Origin: Actinomycetota bacterium
GTDB lineage: Bacteria; Actinomycetota; Acidimicrobiia; Acidimicrobiales; CAIXPF01
Length of the DNA stretch: 44,552 nucleotides
NCBI GenBank assembly: GCA_016870475.1
Contig: VGBO01000014.1
Location: forward strand, 1-44,552
Reading direction: 5' to 3'
Shown: one piece after another, positions 33,835-44,459 of the stretch
Layout of the letters: each line of letters opens with the position of its first letter
Numbering within the stretch: position 1 is the stretch's first letter
The notes under the pieces: generated by a model
The model's database searches: none
The model's input: the letters and a program-made list of their open reading frames with translations, nothing else
What the model was told of the DNA's origin: nothing
Translations under genes and position numbers: made by a program

Positions 33835-33868
33835 CTGGTTGAGTCAATCTTCACTGGTTGACTAGGGT
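33835..33868 (+). promoter_or_regulatory. ars operon promoter and ArsR operator candidate
   Basis: A -35-like TTGAGT (33839-33844) and a -10-like TAGGGT (33863-33868) are 18 bases apart, and the ATG follows the -10 box by 7 bases, so a leaderless transcript is likely. The same stretch contains an inverted repeat AGTCAA (33842-33847) / TTGACT (33858-33863) and two copies of CTGGTTGA 19 bases apart, overlapping the promoter. That is what an ArsR self-repression site would look like. Confidence 0.5.
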
Positions 33869-33875
33869 CGGCCGC

Positions 33876-34532
33876 ATGGACGACATCGCTCGACGGGCCG
33901 CACGACACGCGGCGCTCGGCGACCCCGTTCGCCTCGGCATCGTGGACGAGCTCTCACGGTCCGACCGGGCACCGGTCGAGCTCCGTCGCCGGTTCGGACT
34001 CGAGTCGAACCTGCTCGCCCACCACCTCGACGTGCTCGAAGGCGTCGGCCTGATCACGAGGTCGCAGTCGAGCGGCGATGGACGACGCCGCTACGTGCAC
34101 CTGCTCCGGGACACGCTCGACGCCGTCGGGTCCCATCCGCCGCTCGAACCGCAGGAGGCGTTGTTCGTGTGCACGGCGAACTCCGCCCGCAGCCAGCTCG
34201 CTGCGGCCCTCTGGCGCGCCCGCACCGGTGCCCCGGCGACGTCCGCCGGCACCCAACCCGCCGAACGAGTCCACCCGGGCGCCGTTGCCGCCGCCCGGCG
34301 CGCCGGGCTCGATCTCAGCGCTGCCCGCCCTCGTGCGGTTGCCTCGCTCCGCCGGATCCCGGCGCTCCGGATCACCGTGTGCGACCGCGCCTACGAGGAT
34401 CTCGACGCCACGGACAACTGGTTGCACTGGTCGATCACCGATCCCGTCCCGGCTGCGGACAGGGCTGCGTTCGATGCCGCGGTTCGCCAGATCGACGACC
34501 GCATCCGGACGATCACGAGGTCTGCGGCATGA
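33876..34532 (+). CDS. ArsR regulator fused to low-molecular-weight phosphatase/arsenate reductase domain
   Basis: This 218-residue fusion joins an ArsR-type winged helix (about 1-85, with LESNLLAHHLDVLEGVGLITRS) to a low-molecular-weight phosphatase fold (about 94-218). The second domain keeps the CX5R loop CTANSAR (C99-R105) and a late DP pair (D189-P190) for a general acid. It could sense arsenite and also reduce arsenate, or use the second domain as a sensor. I see no obvious arsenite-binding Cys cluster in the winged-helix half, so how it senses is unclear. The ATG at 33876 follows a TAGGGT box. It overlaps the aquaporin gene by 4 bases. Confidence 0.9.
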   Translation: MDDIARRAARHAALGDPVRLGIVDELSRSDRAPVELRRRFGLESNLLAHHLDVLEGVGLITRSQSSGDGRRRYVHLLRDTLDAVGSHPPLEPQEALFVCTANSARSQLAAALWRARTGAPATSAGTQPAERVHPGAVAAARRAGLDLSAARPRAVASLRRIPALRITVCDRAYEDLDATDNWLHWSITDPVPAADRAAFDAAVRQIDDRIRTITRSAA

Positions 34533-35221
34533 CGACCACGACCGATCACCGCGACCTCGCCCGTCGACTCCTCGCCGAAGCGCTCGGCACCTGTCTGCTG
34601 ATCGTCGCCGTCGTCGGATCGGGGATCATGGCGAGCCGCCTCTCCCCCGCCGACGTCGGCCTGCAGCTCCTCGAGAACGCTGCGGCGACGGCCGGCGCGC
34701 TGGTCGGACTCATCCTCATGTTCGGCGCCGTGTCCGGGGCGCACTTCAATCCCGTCGTCACGCTCGTCGACCGCCTGAGCGGGGCGATCTCCTGGCGGGA
34801 CGCCGGGGCGTACATGGTCGCCCAGACCCTCGGCGGCTGTGTCGGGACGGTGGTCGCGAACGTGATGTTCGAACTCGACGCCGTCACCTTGTCGACGAAG
34901 GAGCGGTCGTCAGCCGCCCTGTGGCTCTCCGAGGTCGTGGCGACGATCGGCCTGCTCCTCGTGATCAACGGCTGCGTTCGGACCGGCCGGGCGTCGGTCG
35001 TGCCGTTCGCGGTCGGGGCCTGGATCGGTGGTGCCTACTGGTTCACGTCGTCCACGAGCTTCGCGAACCCCGCTGTCACCGTCGCCCGGACCCTCACCGA
35101 CACCTTCGCGGGCATCGCACCCGCATCGGCGCCGGCTTTCGTCGCCATGCAGTTCCTCGGGGCGGTCATTGCCTTCTCCCTGATCCGAACCCTCTACCCG
35201 AACGAGGCCTCCGATGTCTGA
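34529..35221 (+). CDS. MIP-family aquaglyceroporin in an ars operon
   Basis: The 230-residue channel has six hydrophobic helices and two half-helix motifs, one variant (GAHFNPVV) and one normal (SFANPAV). The arginine that usually follows the second NPA directly is shifted (NPAVTVAR), which would alter the selectivity filter. In Sinorhizobium meliloti an aquaglyceroporin, AqpS, replaces an arsenite pump, letting arsenite made by ArsC flow out. The position between the ArsR fusion and arsC argues for the same job here. It overlaps both neighbours. Confidence 0.9.
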   Translation: MTTTTDHRDLARRLLAEALGTCLLIVAVVGSGIMASRLSPADVGLQLLENAAATAGALVGLILMFGAVSGAHFNPVVTLVDRLSGAISWRDAGAYMVAQTLGGCVGTVVANVMFELDAVTLSTKERSSAALWLSEVVATIGLLLVINGCVRTGRASVVPFAVGAWIGGAYWFTSSTSFANPAVTVARTLTDTFAGIAPASAPAFVAMQFLGAVIAFSLIRTLYPNEASDV

Positions 35222-35630
35222 CGACCGCCCGAGCGTGCTGTTCCTGTGCGTCCACAACGCCGGACGTTCACAGATGGCAGCCGGTTGGCTGCGCCATCTC
35301 GCCGGTGACCGGATCAGCGTGTACTCCGGTGGGTCGGCGCCGGCGTCGGAGATCAACCCGGCCGCAGTCGCTGCGATGGCGGAGGTCGGCGTCGACATCA
35401 CCGCGGAGTTCCCCAAGCCGTGGACCGACGAGATCGTCCGTGCCGCCGACGTCGTCGTGACCATGGGGTGCGGCGACGCGTGCCCGCTCTTCCCCGGCAA
35501 GCGCTACGAGGACTGGGTCCTCGAGGACCCCGCCGGCCAGGGCATCGATGCGGTGCGTCCCATCCGCGACGACATCCGGGAGCGAGTCGTCGGTCTCATG
35601 GCCTCGCTCGGCGTGGCGCCCGTCGTCTGA
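35214..35630 (+). CDS. arsC: Arsenate reductase ArsC, low-molecular-weight phosphatase type
   Basis: The 138-residue enzyme reduces arsenate to arsenite. It has the nucleophile loop CVHNAGRS (C12 to R18) and the pair C86/C90 in MGCGDACP, followed by FPGKRYEDW and LEDPAGQG. This closely spaced Cys pair is typical of actinobacterial ArsC proteins, some of which use mycothiol and mycoredoxin. The ATG lies inside the end of the aquaporin gene (8-base overlap). Substrate arsenate enters by phosphate transporters encoded elsewhere; arsenite would leave through the channel. Confidence 0.93.
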   Translation: MSDDRPSVLFLCVHNAGRSQMAAGWLRHLAGDRISVYSGGSAPASEINPAAVAAMAEVGVDITAEFPKPWTDEIVRAADVVVTMGCGDACPLFPGKRYEDWVLEDPAGQGIDAVRPIRDDIRERVVGLMASLGVAPVV

Positions 35631-37330: not shown

Positions 37331-39034
37331 TTACGACACCACCGGCGAGGGGCGAACGACCTTCGCCGTCGGGAAGCCGAGCATGCCGTTGTGCGCGAAG
37401 ACGTAGGCGTTCGTGCGCAGCGGGTCGCCGGTCACGGCGATCTGGATGTGCGATGGGTCCGTGACGATGGGGACGAGCCGGTCGGGTGACGTCCCCTGGC
37501 CGAAGACCGGTGCGGCAACCCGCAGGTTGACGAGATCGTTCAGTGTGCGCCGCCCCGGCACGAGGTTCGTCCATTCGCCGAGGTACTGCTCGAAACGCCG
37601 GGCCGGGATGCGGGCCCGTTCCCACAACGCCTCACGGAGGCGGTCCTTCGACCAACCGGCAGCTGCGATCGTGCGGGCGAGCACCGGGCTCAACAGCAAC
37701 AACGGCCGGTAGGTGTTCGACGCGACGCCGACGGTGAACACGTACTCCCACCCGCCGATCTTCACGAGTGCGTCGGCGAGGTAGTCGAGCATCTGCTCGG
37801 GTGTCTGCCCGTACACCGAGGTGACGACACCGCCGCCCGTGAAGCGCGCGATCGTCACGGCGTCGACGCCCGCGGCGATCCCGTGGTCGGCTGCGAGCGG
37901 CGGCCAACCGATCTCGGTGAGCACCGCTTCGTTCTCCGCCATCGCAACACGCCAGGTGTTGCCGTACGTCGCCTTGTCCGTCTCCCAGGGGAGAAACCCT
38001 GCGACGTTGCGCAGGTAGATCCGCACGAACCGGCCGACGGAGGTGTTCGCCTGGAACCCGTCGCGTAGCGCACCCTGCTCGTCGTTGAAGCCGAGCCGTC
38101 GAGCGATCGGGCCGTTCACCGTCACGAGCGTCTCCGCCCCGGGCGTGTTGCCGGAGTGTTCGATGCCGTATGCCGGGTCGGCGAGCGCTTCGGCGATGGC
38201 GAGGAGCACGGGCATGTACTCGGGTCGGCAGCCCGCCATCACACCGTTCACAGCGACGGACTGCACCGTTGCGGCCCGACGATCCGGCAGCAGGGGGCCG
38301 AAGCTGTGGCCGGGGTCGAGGTCGCTGTGCGCGAGGAACGCATCGATCGCGCCGACGGTCGGCGGCACGACAGGTAGCCCGTCGCTCCAGCGTCGTTCGA
38401 GGAAGTGGCGGTTCACCTCCTCGAAACTGCCGCGGAAGACGACCTCGGTCGGCCCCGGGTCGGCCGTGTCGATGCCGATGTCGAACTGCGTGCAGAGATT
38501 CGCTATCACCTGCTCGAGCGTGTGCTCGGCGATGTTGCGTTCGAGTTCGTCGACGGTCTGCGTGTCGACGTGCCCGGGGACGACGGCAACGGGGAGGTTC
38601 GGCATGCCGAGCCCGCCCGCCGTGGCGGAAGCCTGGCCGACGAACCCTTCGCAGACGAGCGATGAGGTCGGGACCCCGGCGAGTTCAGCAGCGGCGGATG
38701 CCCGCAACACGGCGGGCGTGCAGCTGCCTCAACAACCCATCCCGGAGATGACGGCGTCGACCCCGAGTTCACCCAGGCGACGCCCGAGCCCTTCGAGCAC
38801 CTCATGTTCGCCGGCGCCGTGCGTCGTGCCGAACGCCTCATAGGACACGAAGGAGAGGCCGGGGATCCGCGCCTGCAGCTCGCGCTCGAGGATCGGGAAG
38901 ATTTCCTCGCCCCGGAACATGTAGTCCCACAGGAACGCGATCCGACGACCTTCGAGCGACGTCGGACGCGGGGCGAGCGCGACCGGTTCGGCGGTGCGTG
39001 GGCTACGTGGCCAGACGACGGCGTAGTCGTTCAT
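37331..39034 (-). CDS. UGSC-family selenoprotein with C-terminal domain (in-frame TGA = Sec102)
   Basis: One open frame runs from the ATG at 39034 to 37331, interrupted only by TGA at 38729-38731. Read as selenocysteine it gives 567 residues with ISGMGC-U-GSCTPAV at the switch; both halves are needed for the fold. The N-terminal part (about 1-205: RRIAFLWDYMFRGEE, ELGVDAVISGMGC) matches what I recall of the UGSC (seleno)protein family, where U or Cys precedes GSC, so a thiol/selenol redox role is likely. From about 210 a second domain follows, with DGLPVVPPT (218-226), GCRPEYMP and TVNGPIARRLGFN; I do not recognise a function for it. A SECIS-like hairpin lies right after the TGA. An alternative is a nonsense-mutated pseudogene, but the conserved sequence and hairpin argue against that. 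Confidence 0.85.
38700..38717 (-). promoter_or_regulatory. Bacterial SECIS element after the UGSC TGA
   Basis: On the minus strand, 11 bases after the TGA, GCCCGC pairs perfectly with GCGGGC around the loop CGTGTT. Known bacterial SECIS hairpins sit just downstream of the UGA with the apical loop about 16-37 bases away and a G among its first two bases. Here the loop starts 18 bases after the TGA and its second base is G. Confidence 0.75.
38729..38731 (-). other. Selenocysteine codon (TGA) of the UGSC protein
   Basis: TGA in the frame of the gene, flanked by TGT (Cys) before and GGC AGC TGC (Gly-Ser-Cys) after. In family members lacking selenocysteine this place is a Cys. The selenosulfide pair U102/C105 would be the active site. 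Confidence 0.8.
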
Positions 39035-43289: not shown

Positions 43290-44459
43290 ATGAGCGCCGA
43301 TGGATCGATCCGGGACCGGGTAGGCGACATCCCCGTCCCCGAGTTCACGTCCACCCCTGCGACCACGGCGCCCCCTCTGTCACAGGCGCGGGTCGCGATC
43401 GTGACGACCGCCGGCCTCCGGGCATCGGGCGACGTGCAGTTGTGGCAGCCGACCGACGGTTCGTTCACCGTGCTGCCCGGCGATGCACGCGACGTGCAGC
43501 TCTCGCACTTCTCCCCGAACTTCGACCGCACCGGCTTCGCGGCGGACCTCAACGTCGTCTACCCGCTCGACCGCCTCGCCGAGATGGCGGCCAGCGGCGA
43601 GATCGGCAGCGTCGCGCCACGGCACCTGTCCTTCATGGGCGCCCAGTTCGATGCGACGTTCTCGACGATGCTCCTCGACAGCGGCCCGGCCGCAGCGAAG
43701 TTGCTGCGGGACGACGGCGTCGACGTCGTGCTCCTCACCCCCGTTTGACCGTTCTGCACGCGCACCGTGGGTGTGCTGGCACGAGTGTTCGAATCGGCGG
43801 GGTTGGGGACGGTCGGGTTGTCGCTCGTGCGGCGGCAGGCCAAGAACATCAAGGCGCCGCGGTTCCTGCACTGTGAGTTCCCGCTCGGCCGCCCGCTCGG
43901 CCGCCCGGGTGACGCTGCGTTCCAGACCGACGTGCTCCGTCGTGCGTTCGCGCTGCTCGACCGGTCCGACGTGCCCGTGCTCGAGGACCACCCCGAGGTC
44001 ATCGAGGACGAGGCCGACGACGCCGCCACCTGCACGCTCCCGCCGCGTCTCGACCCGAACGCCCACCCCGCCGTCGACGAGGCGGCGGGCCTGCGACCGG
44101 CGTACAACCGCCAGCTCGCTGCGGCCGACGGGCGCACCGCCGTCGGGCGGGTCGTCGGGGCGGACGGCATCGGTGACCTCGTGCGCCGGTTCGTCACCCT
44201 CGCGGAGAGCGCCGACCTCGACGCCGCCGGCTTCGACGCCGACACGGTCCGCGCCGCCGGCCAGGACCTGCGGGCGTACTACGAGGAGGCCGGGTTGGCG
44301 CTCGCCGACCACGTGCCCGCCGCCCGTCAGCTCGAGACCTGGTTCTACCGCCACACCCGCACCGGCGAGGTGGTGCGGGCGGCGTCAGCAGCGCTCGAAG
44401 CCGCAGGCGTCGACCGGAACGTCTGGTACTACCTGCTGCCGGGCAACCAACAGGGCTGA
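43290..44459 (+). CDS. GrdB/PrdB-like reductase selenoprotein (in-frame TGA = Sec153)
   Basis: A single frame from 43290 to 44459 is broken only by TGA at 43746-43748. Read as selenocysteine it gives 389 residues with DGVDVVLLTPV-U-PFCTRTVGVLARVFESAGL. The motif TP(V/T)-(U/C)-P-x-C-x-x-TVG-x-x-AR is the active site of the short selenoprotein B-like proteins related to GrdB and PrdB, and Sec153 sits almost where PrdB has it (about 152). Before it, LSHFSPNFDRTGFAAD and LSFMGAQFDATFS, and after it APRFLHCEFPLGRPLGRPGD, are also family segments. The C-terminal 150 residues are a helical domain with YYEEAGLALADHVPAARQLE. The product probably reduces a C-N or similar bond with the U153/C156 pair, but no partner subunits are nearby. 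Confidence 0.88.
43746..43748 (+). other. Selenocysteine codon (TGA) of the GrdB/PrdB-like protein
   Basis: TGA between GTT (Val) and CCG TTC TGC (Pro-Phe-Cys). The protein sequence carries on without frame change through conserved family sequence for 236 further residues. Cys-containing homologues have Cys at this place. Confidence 0.85.
43760..43776 (+). promoter_or_regulatory. Bacterial SECIS element after the GrdB/PrdB-like TGA
   Basis: Eleven bases after the TGA, GCGCAC pairs with GTGTGC (five Watson-Crick pairs and one G-U) around a loop CGTGG; a further C-G pair is possible at the top. The distance and the G at the second loop base match the UGSC hairpin, and the flanking TGCACGC is shared by both. 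Confidence 0.72.

What the first reader, a model, noticed from the sequence alone, without database searches (positions are those of the whole stretch)
43290..44459. Second selenoprotein: GrdB/PrdB-like reductase with U153-P-F-C
The frame reads through one TGA from LLTPV to PFCTRTVGVLAR. The residues on both sides are those conserved in the short reductase selenoprotein B-like family, and Sec lies at almost the same residue number as in proline reductase PrdB. A conventional caller would give two genes (43290-43748 and a later start on the same frame), losing the active site. In an aerobic-looking actinobacterium full of oxygenases the role is unlikely to be Stickland fermentation, so the function of this short form is open.
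Basis: partly seen in the sequence, partly recalled or inferred. Interest (0 to 1): 0.9.

Follow-up and report, generated by a model that had tools for sequence, protein, structure and literature searches.

The report
Long PrdB-like selenoprotein in aerobic bacteria
The gene really does use an in-frame stop codon (UGA) to insert selenocysteine, and it makes a stand-alone, enlarged cousin of the proline-reductase subunit PrdB that is common in water-dwelling Acidimicrobiia and scattered other bacteria but whose substrate nobody knows.

Summary
Confirmed. The frame 43290-44459 reads through one UGA (43746-43748, U153). Homology to PrdB runs unbroken across it. In 74 distinct relatives the position is UGA 69 times, Cys 3 times, Ala twice; in 80 long-form relatives from several phyla it is UGA in all 80 (the sets overlap partly). 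A SECIS-type hairpin right after the UGA keeps all six core pairs in 78 of those 80, with a compensatory change, and decays in the Ala and Cys relatives. The genome carries tRNA-Sec, selA, selB and selD. Purifying selection acts on both sides of the UGA.

It is not PrdB or GrdB: the PrdB equivalog score is 110 bits against a cut-off of 300, and no PrdA/GrdE partner (PF09338) is found in the 98.7% complete genome, while the same search finds it in two control records. It belongs to a well-supported clade (100/99) with an extra ~150-residue helical C-terminal domain, unmatched in Pfam or PDB, and an invariant third thiol, C248. PrdB-like UxxC selenoproteins were already reported from ocean metagenomes in 2005 and 2008, so this is a new variant of a known kind. 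Most likely it is a stand-alone Sec/thiol reductase; the substrate is unknown.

The parts
43290..44456 (+). Coding sequence of a long-form PrdB-like selenoprotein, 389 aa with Sec153 (stop codon 44457-44459)
   Evidence: Read-through translation; 30-row alignment with the start and end conserved; dN/dS low on both sides of the UGA
43746..43748 (+). In-frame UGA encoding Sec153
   Evidence: UGA in 69/74 distinct relatives and 80/80 long forms; aligned with the UGA of annotated PrdB of Peptoclostridium and Ligilactobacillus
43756..43780 (+). SECIS-type hairpin: stem 43760-43765 with 43771-43776, 5-nt loop CGTGG 43766-43770, outer pairs 43756-43757 with 43779-43780
   Evidence: Covariation C-G to U-A and G-U to G-C in 30 sequences, 99.6% of cells paired, 0/500 shuffles as high on pairing and covariation score; same fold predicted by RNAalifold; six core pairs kept in 78/80 UGA relatives but only 3/6 in Ala relatives
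43755..43757 (+). Cys156 codon, partner of Sec in the U-P-F-C (UxxC) motif
   Evidence: Cys in 30/30 long forms, the two Ala forms included
43365..43958 (+). PrdB/GrdB-homologous domain (residues 26-223), Rossmann-like alpha/beta
   Evidence: TIGR04483 residues 26-223, 110 bits; PF07355 residues 13-150, 27.3 bits over cut-off 22; AlphaFold2 pLDDT 92.3
44031..44033 (+). Cys248 codon, invariant third thiol of the long form, candidate resolving Cys
   Evidence: Cys in 30/30 long forms; absent from canonical PrdB, which ends before it
44007..44456 (+). C-terminal helical domain specific to the long form (residues 240-389)
   Evidence: No Pfam match; AlphaFold2 alone pLDDT 94.7; no PDB match at Foldseek E<=0.001 or VIA Z>=5; 59% mean column identity over 30 rows

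Best explanation
The gene encodes a true selenoprotein. SelB and tRNA-Sec decode the UGA at 43746 with the hairpin at 43756-43780 to give Sec153 (strongly supported by sequence; not shown at protein level). The product is a long-form relative of PrdB that works without the pyruvoyl subunit PrdA. The Sec153 selenolate is the attacking nucleophile. Cys156 of the UxxC motif resolves the resulting intermediate as a selenenylsulfide. The invariant Cys248 or a cellular thioredoxin then returns the enzyme to the reduced state (inferred from PrdB/GrdB chemistry and from which residues are invariant). The net reaction is a thiol-dependent reduction, most plausibly the reductive cleavage of a C-X bond next to a carbonyl in a small catabolic substrate (a guess from the GrdB/PrdB reaction type). 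The helical C-terminal domain probably covers the active site or binds substrate in place of PrdA (guess).
For: UGA conserved with a covarying SECIS stem that decays where the codon is not UGA. The own genome has tRNA-Sec, selA, selB and selD, itself with a UGA. Across 395 genomes of the class the family goes with selA (118 of 133 carriers have it; Fisher p 3e-13). The three tested carriers without UGA lack selA, tRNA-Sec, and selB/selD over cut-off. Purifying selection downstream of the UGA. Homology to PrdB across the UGA. No PF09338 subunit in the genome while the same search finds it in two control records. U153, C156 and C248 invariant in the UGA long forms. Single clade, support 100/99. 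No gene was found to be a constant neighbour in 80 loci, in line with a stand-alone enzyme.
Against: No protein-level evidence of selenium. Two Ala-for-Sec relatives are still under purifying selection, so part of the function may not need Sec. The helical domain and the lack of neighbours give no substrate hint. Of the 15 PrdB-like carriers without a selA hit only three are known non-UGA; most of the rest are incomplete, but G296 is listed as 96% complete. G025, a UGA carrier with selA, selB and selD, gave no tRNA-Sec hit at E<=1e-9, where only 150 of 700 candidates were scored.
Confidence: 0.8

Rival explanations
1. Thiol-disulfide oxidoreductase or peroxide-type antioxidant enzyme: UxxC shuttles electrons to disulfides or peroxides and never bonds to carbon. 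(It shares the Sec part of the main explanation and differs only in the reaction.)
For: UxxC is the redox motif of many marine selenoproteins (PMC2398784, PMC1088965); an aerobic setting; no conserved catabolic operon.
Against: The core is homologous to GrdB/PrdB, whose Sec acts in reductive cleavage, and is Rossmann-like in the model; no thioredoxin-type match stands out among the PDB rows, though these matches are weak.
Confidence: 0.35
2. True D-proline (or glycine/betaine/sarcosine) reductase component serving Stickland-type energy metabolism.
For: Best family match is PrdB, 110 bits; Sec in the same alignment column.
Against: Below every curated cut-off of the equivalogs; no PF09338 subunit (PrdA/GrdE) in the 98.7% complete genome, control positive; extra C-terminal domain; separate clade from PrdB.
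Confidence: 0.03
3. The UGA is an ordinary stop: two genes, a pseudogene, or an assembly error.
For: A conventional ORF caller gives two genes; the open frame alone has about an 8% chance.
Against: UGA kept in 80/80 long-form loci from several phyla; dN/dS well below 1 downstream; covarying SECIS; complete Sec machinery.
Confidence: 0.02
4. The UGA is read through with a standard amino acid (near-cognate Trp/Cys tRNA) instead of Sec.
For: Two relatives use Ala and three use Cys, so a standard residue is tolerated.
Against: SECIS-type hairpin conserved only where UGA is present; association with selA across 395 genomes.
Confidence: 0.03

Closest known systems
PrdB, selenocysteine subunit of D-proline reductase (TIGR04483)
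   Same: Homologous over residues 26-223 (34.5% identity to Peptoclostridium PrdB over residues 30-229); Sec in the same column; UxxC motif
   Different: 110 bits against cut-off 300; 389 aa against about 240; no PrdA in the genome; PFC[TS]RT after the Sec in place of the GTCHR of PrdB; own clade
GrdB, GrdF, GrdH (glycine/sarcosine/betaine reductase selenoprotein B; PF07355, TIGR01918)
   Same: PF07355 over its cut-off (27.3 against 22); UxxC motif
   Different: Matches only the C-terminal part of the family (profile 205-345); the N-terminal ~200 residues are missing and a new C-terminal domain is present; no PF09338 partner
'Proline reductase PrdB' UxxC selenoproteins of marine metagenomes (PMC1088965, PMC2398784)
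   Same: Same pfam07355/UxxC description; 42 Sec genes in the Sargasso Sea and 235 in GOS, so this kind of selenoprotein is already known
   Different: Those counts do not separate the long form; the passages read in those papers do not mention a C-terminal helical domain, a lack of PrdA, or Ala replacements
UGSC-family selenoprotein (PF24696)
   Same: Another selenoprotein of unknown function in the same window (37334-39031, minus strand)
   Different: Different family: the window protein does not match it

Membership tests
Bacterial selenoprotein | In-frame UGA conserved among homologues, with coding sequence on both sides | tested here: met
   69/74 and 80/80 UGA; low dN/dS on both sides
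Bacterial selenoprotein | SECIS hairpin directly downstream of the UGA with a small apical loop containing G | tested here: met
   Stem with 5-nt loop CGTGN or GGTCN, covarying; [quoted passage not shown]
Bacterial selenoprotein | selA, selB, selD and tRNA-Sec in the genome | tested here: met
Bacterial selenoprotein | Cys homologues at the Sec position | tested here: met
   Cys in short relatives L059, L082, L083 and in plasmid homologues L187, L188; none found among long forms, which show Ala instead
Bacterial selenoprotein | Selenium shown in the protein | not testable with these tools
   Needs 75Se labelling or mass spectrometry
PrdB (D-proline reductase, TIGR04483) | Score over the curated equivalog cut-off | tested here: not met
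   110.3 bits against 300
PrdB (D-proline reductase, TIGR04483) | Sec in the PrdB column, UxxC motif | tested here: met
   Alignment with L186 and L189; UGA in both
PrdB (D-proline reductase, TIGR04483) | PrdA (PF09338) partner | tested here: not met
   0 hits in the own genome, 3 hits in each of two control records
PrdB (D-proline reductase, TIGR04483) | D-proline reductase activity | not testable with these tools
   Needs an enzyme assay
GrdB family (PF07355 / TIGR01918) | Pfam gathering score | tested here: met
   27.3 bits against 22
GrdB family (PF07355 / TIGR01918) | NCBIfam subfamily cut-off and full-length architecture | tested here: not met
   38 bits against 65.45; only profile positions 203-411 of 431 matched
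UGSC family (PF24696) | Match to the family model | tested here: not met
   Only PF07355 found for this protein at E<=10

The most novel reading that the evidence does not exclude
A single-subunit, PrdA-independent, almost exclusively Sec-using enzyme family of aerobic bacteria that uses a U-C-C triad (U153, C156, C248) under a new helical domain to reduce a substrate outside amino-acid fermentation, for example reductive C-X cleavage or detoxification. In a lineage that lost Sec it survives with Ala in place of Sec, in a role that does not need the selenolate.
Probability: 0.3. Interest if true: 0.7.

Novelty: new variant of a known kind. Interest (0 to 1): 0.45.

Why it matters
Standard gene calling splits this protein at its active site, so a common selenoprotein of Acidimicrobiia, also present in MAGs labelled Chloroflexi, Proteobacteria, Hydrogenedentota and Marinimicrobia, is easily missed or filed as PrdB. 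The PrdB label points to proline fermentation, which this genome cannot perform by the known two-subunit route. The long form has its own domain and an invariant third thiol, which gives a clear target for finding out what PrdB-like selenoproteins do where Stickland fermentation is not possible. The Ala-for-Sec relatives are an unusual natural experiment on Sec loss.

Tried and rejected
Chance read-through and pseudogene: rejected by conservation, dN/dS and SECIS covariation. Single-sequence SECIS folding was uninformative (z -0.51 to 0.51); only the alignment decided it. Operon partner: all-against-all comparison of neighbour ORFs in 32 and 80 loci gave no constant neighbour, only scattered genes whose translations look like acyl-CoA, sulfatase and monooxygenase functions (not family-searched). 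The upstream DUF3179 gene is not among the conserved neighbours. Solved homologue: none by sequence at a meaningful E-value; Foldseek gave at best E 0.001 for the whole model and VIA Z of at most 7.6 to assorted Rossmann-like folds, a level common for unmatched models; for the C-terminal domain alone Z was at most 4.5. No fold family is thereby excluded. Viral relatives: none confirmed. The C-terminal domain as a separate or fused protein: in a 396-genome phylum sample its hits lie in open frames of 222-236 aa, the length expected downstream of the UGA, except G421 with 429 aa, not examined. The first PF09338 search lacked a positive control and was repeated with one.

Full report
Observation. 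The frame at 43290-44459 (+) reads from ATG to a single in-frame TGA at 43746-43748 and then 236 codons to a terminal TGA. A normal caller sees two ORFs. The open frame by itself is not striking: 8% of random sequences of the same dinucleotide make-up stay open that long.

Is it selenocysteine? Several independent lines say yes. Homology to PrdB runs in one stretch across the codon (residues 26-223, E 9e-32), and U153 aligns with the UGA of annotated PrdB of Peptoclostridium and Ligilactobacillus. Among 74 distinct relatives the position is UGA in 69, Cys in 3 and Ala in 2. Among 80 long-form relatives in public genomes, labelled Acidimicrobiia, Proteobacteria, Chloroflexi, Hydrogenedentota, Binatia, Dormiibacter and Marinimicrobia, it is UGA in all 80. 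These are metagenome-assembled genomes and a few taxon labels look wrong (for instance Klebsiella). The two sets overlap in part.

SECIS. A hairpin directly after the UGA (43756-43780) pairs in 99.6% of cells in 30 sequences, with a C-G to U-A compensatory change in ten; no shuffle of 500 reached the observed pairing or covariation score, and RNAalifold predicts the same structure. The short-form relatives have a hairpin in the same place with a different sequence. All six core pairs form in 78 of 80 UGA loci, but only 3 of 6 in the Ala relatives and 2 to 5 in the Cys relatives. Folding single sequences was not informative.

Machinery. The own genome (98.7% complete) has tRNA-Sec, selA, selB and selD, itself with an in-frame UGA. 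Three carriers without UGA (G397 Cys; G163 and G199 Ala) have no selA, no tRNA-Sec at E<=1e-9, and no selB or selD over cut-off. Across 395 genomes of the class, 118 of 133 carriers have selA against 140 of 262 non-carriers (Fisher p 3e-13; genomes are related, so the p-value is indicative only). Of the 15 exceptions three are the non-UGA genomes; most others are incomplete, but G296 is listed at 96%.

Selection. In five UGA-UGA pairs dN/dS stays well below 1 (0.05 to 0.28) both before and after the UGA; between the window and its two closest relatives it is about 0.12-0.13 before and 0.20-0.23 after. The Ala pair also stays low, about 0.2.

What family? It passes the Pfam GRDB cut-off but fails the PrdB equivalog (110 against 300 bits) and the GrdB subfamily cut-off (38 against 65). 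All 30 aligned long forms match the PrdB model. PrdA/GrdE (PF09338) is not found in the genome, while the same search finds three matches in each of two prd/grd-carrying records (an earlier search without a control was). D-proline reduction by the known two-subunit enzyme is therefore not expected. A maximum-likelihood tree of 96 rows puts the long forms on one side of a branch with support 100/99, apart from the short Sec relatives and from PrdB (long branches join PrdB and the long forms, so that sister relation is unsafe).

What is distinctive? The long form has about 235 residues after Sec, against about 85-90 in PrdB and 100-160 in the short forms. The extra part is a confidently predicted helical domain (pLDDT 94.7) with no Pfam match and no PDB match at Foldseek E<=0.001 or VIA Z>=5. 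C156 and C248 are invariant in 30 of 30. The whole model is confident (pLDDT 92.3) with a Rossmann-like core and no clear solved relative.

How it may work (inferred). By analogy with PrdB/GrdB, the Sec selenolate attacks the substrate, C156 resolves the intermediate, and C248 or thioredoxin resets it. Substrate plasticity of GrdB-type enzymes is suggested by a GrdB-like operon linked to fluoroacetate defluorination in Synergistota (PMC10838667), which is a lead and not evidence for this protein. No constant neighbour was found in 80 loci, so no substrate can be named.

Known or new. PrdB-like UxxC selenoproteins were counted in the Sargasso Sea (42 Sec genes, PMC1088965) and in GOS (235 Sec, 110 Cys, PMC2398784), and a 2026 review lists D-proline reductase under TIGR04483 (PMC13188914). 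None of the passages read describes the long form. Verdict: new variant of a known kind, with a real open question about function.

Noticed in passing
   Followed up: partly
G000:C19:26421-27344, C49:14078-14902, C6:11089-11901: Three more PrdB-like UGA genes in the same genome; the C49 copy has U-P-L-D in place of the UxxC motif.
   Followed up: partly
L057:4001-5152 (+) and L058:3698-4861 (-): Long forms with Ala (GCT, GCG) at the Sec position in genomes without detected Sec machinery, still with low dN/dS.
   Followed up: partly
G000:C59:11095-12048: selD of the window's genome itself contains an in-frame TGA.
   Followed up: no
L189:2914-3639: PrdB on a Ligilactobacillus salivarius plasmid carries an in-frame UGA (Sec151) beside prdA and prdD.
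   Followed up: no
window 35184-35627 (+) and 33843-34529 (+): An ArsC-like arsenate reductase and a protein combining an ArsR-type regulator with an ArsC-like domain.
   Followed up: no
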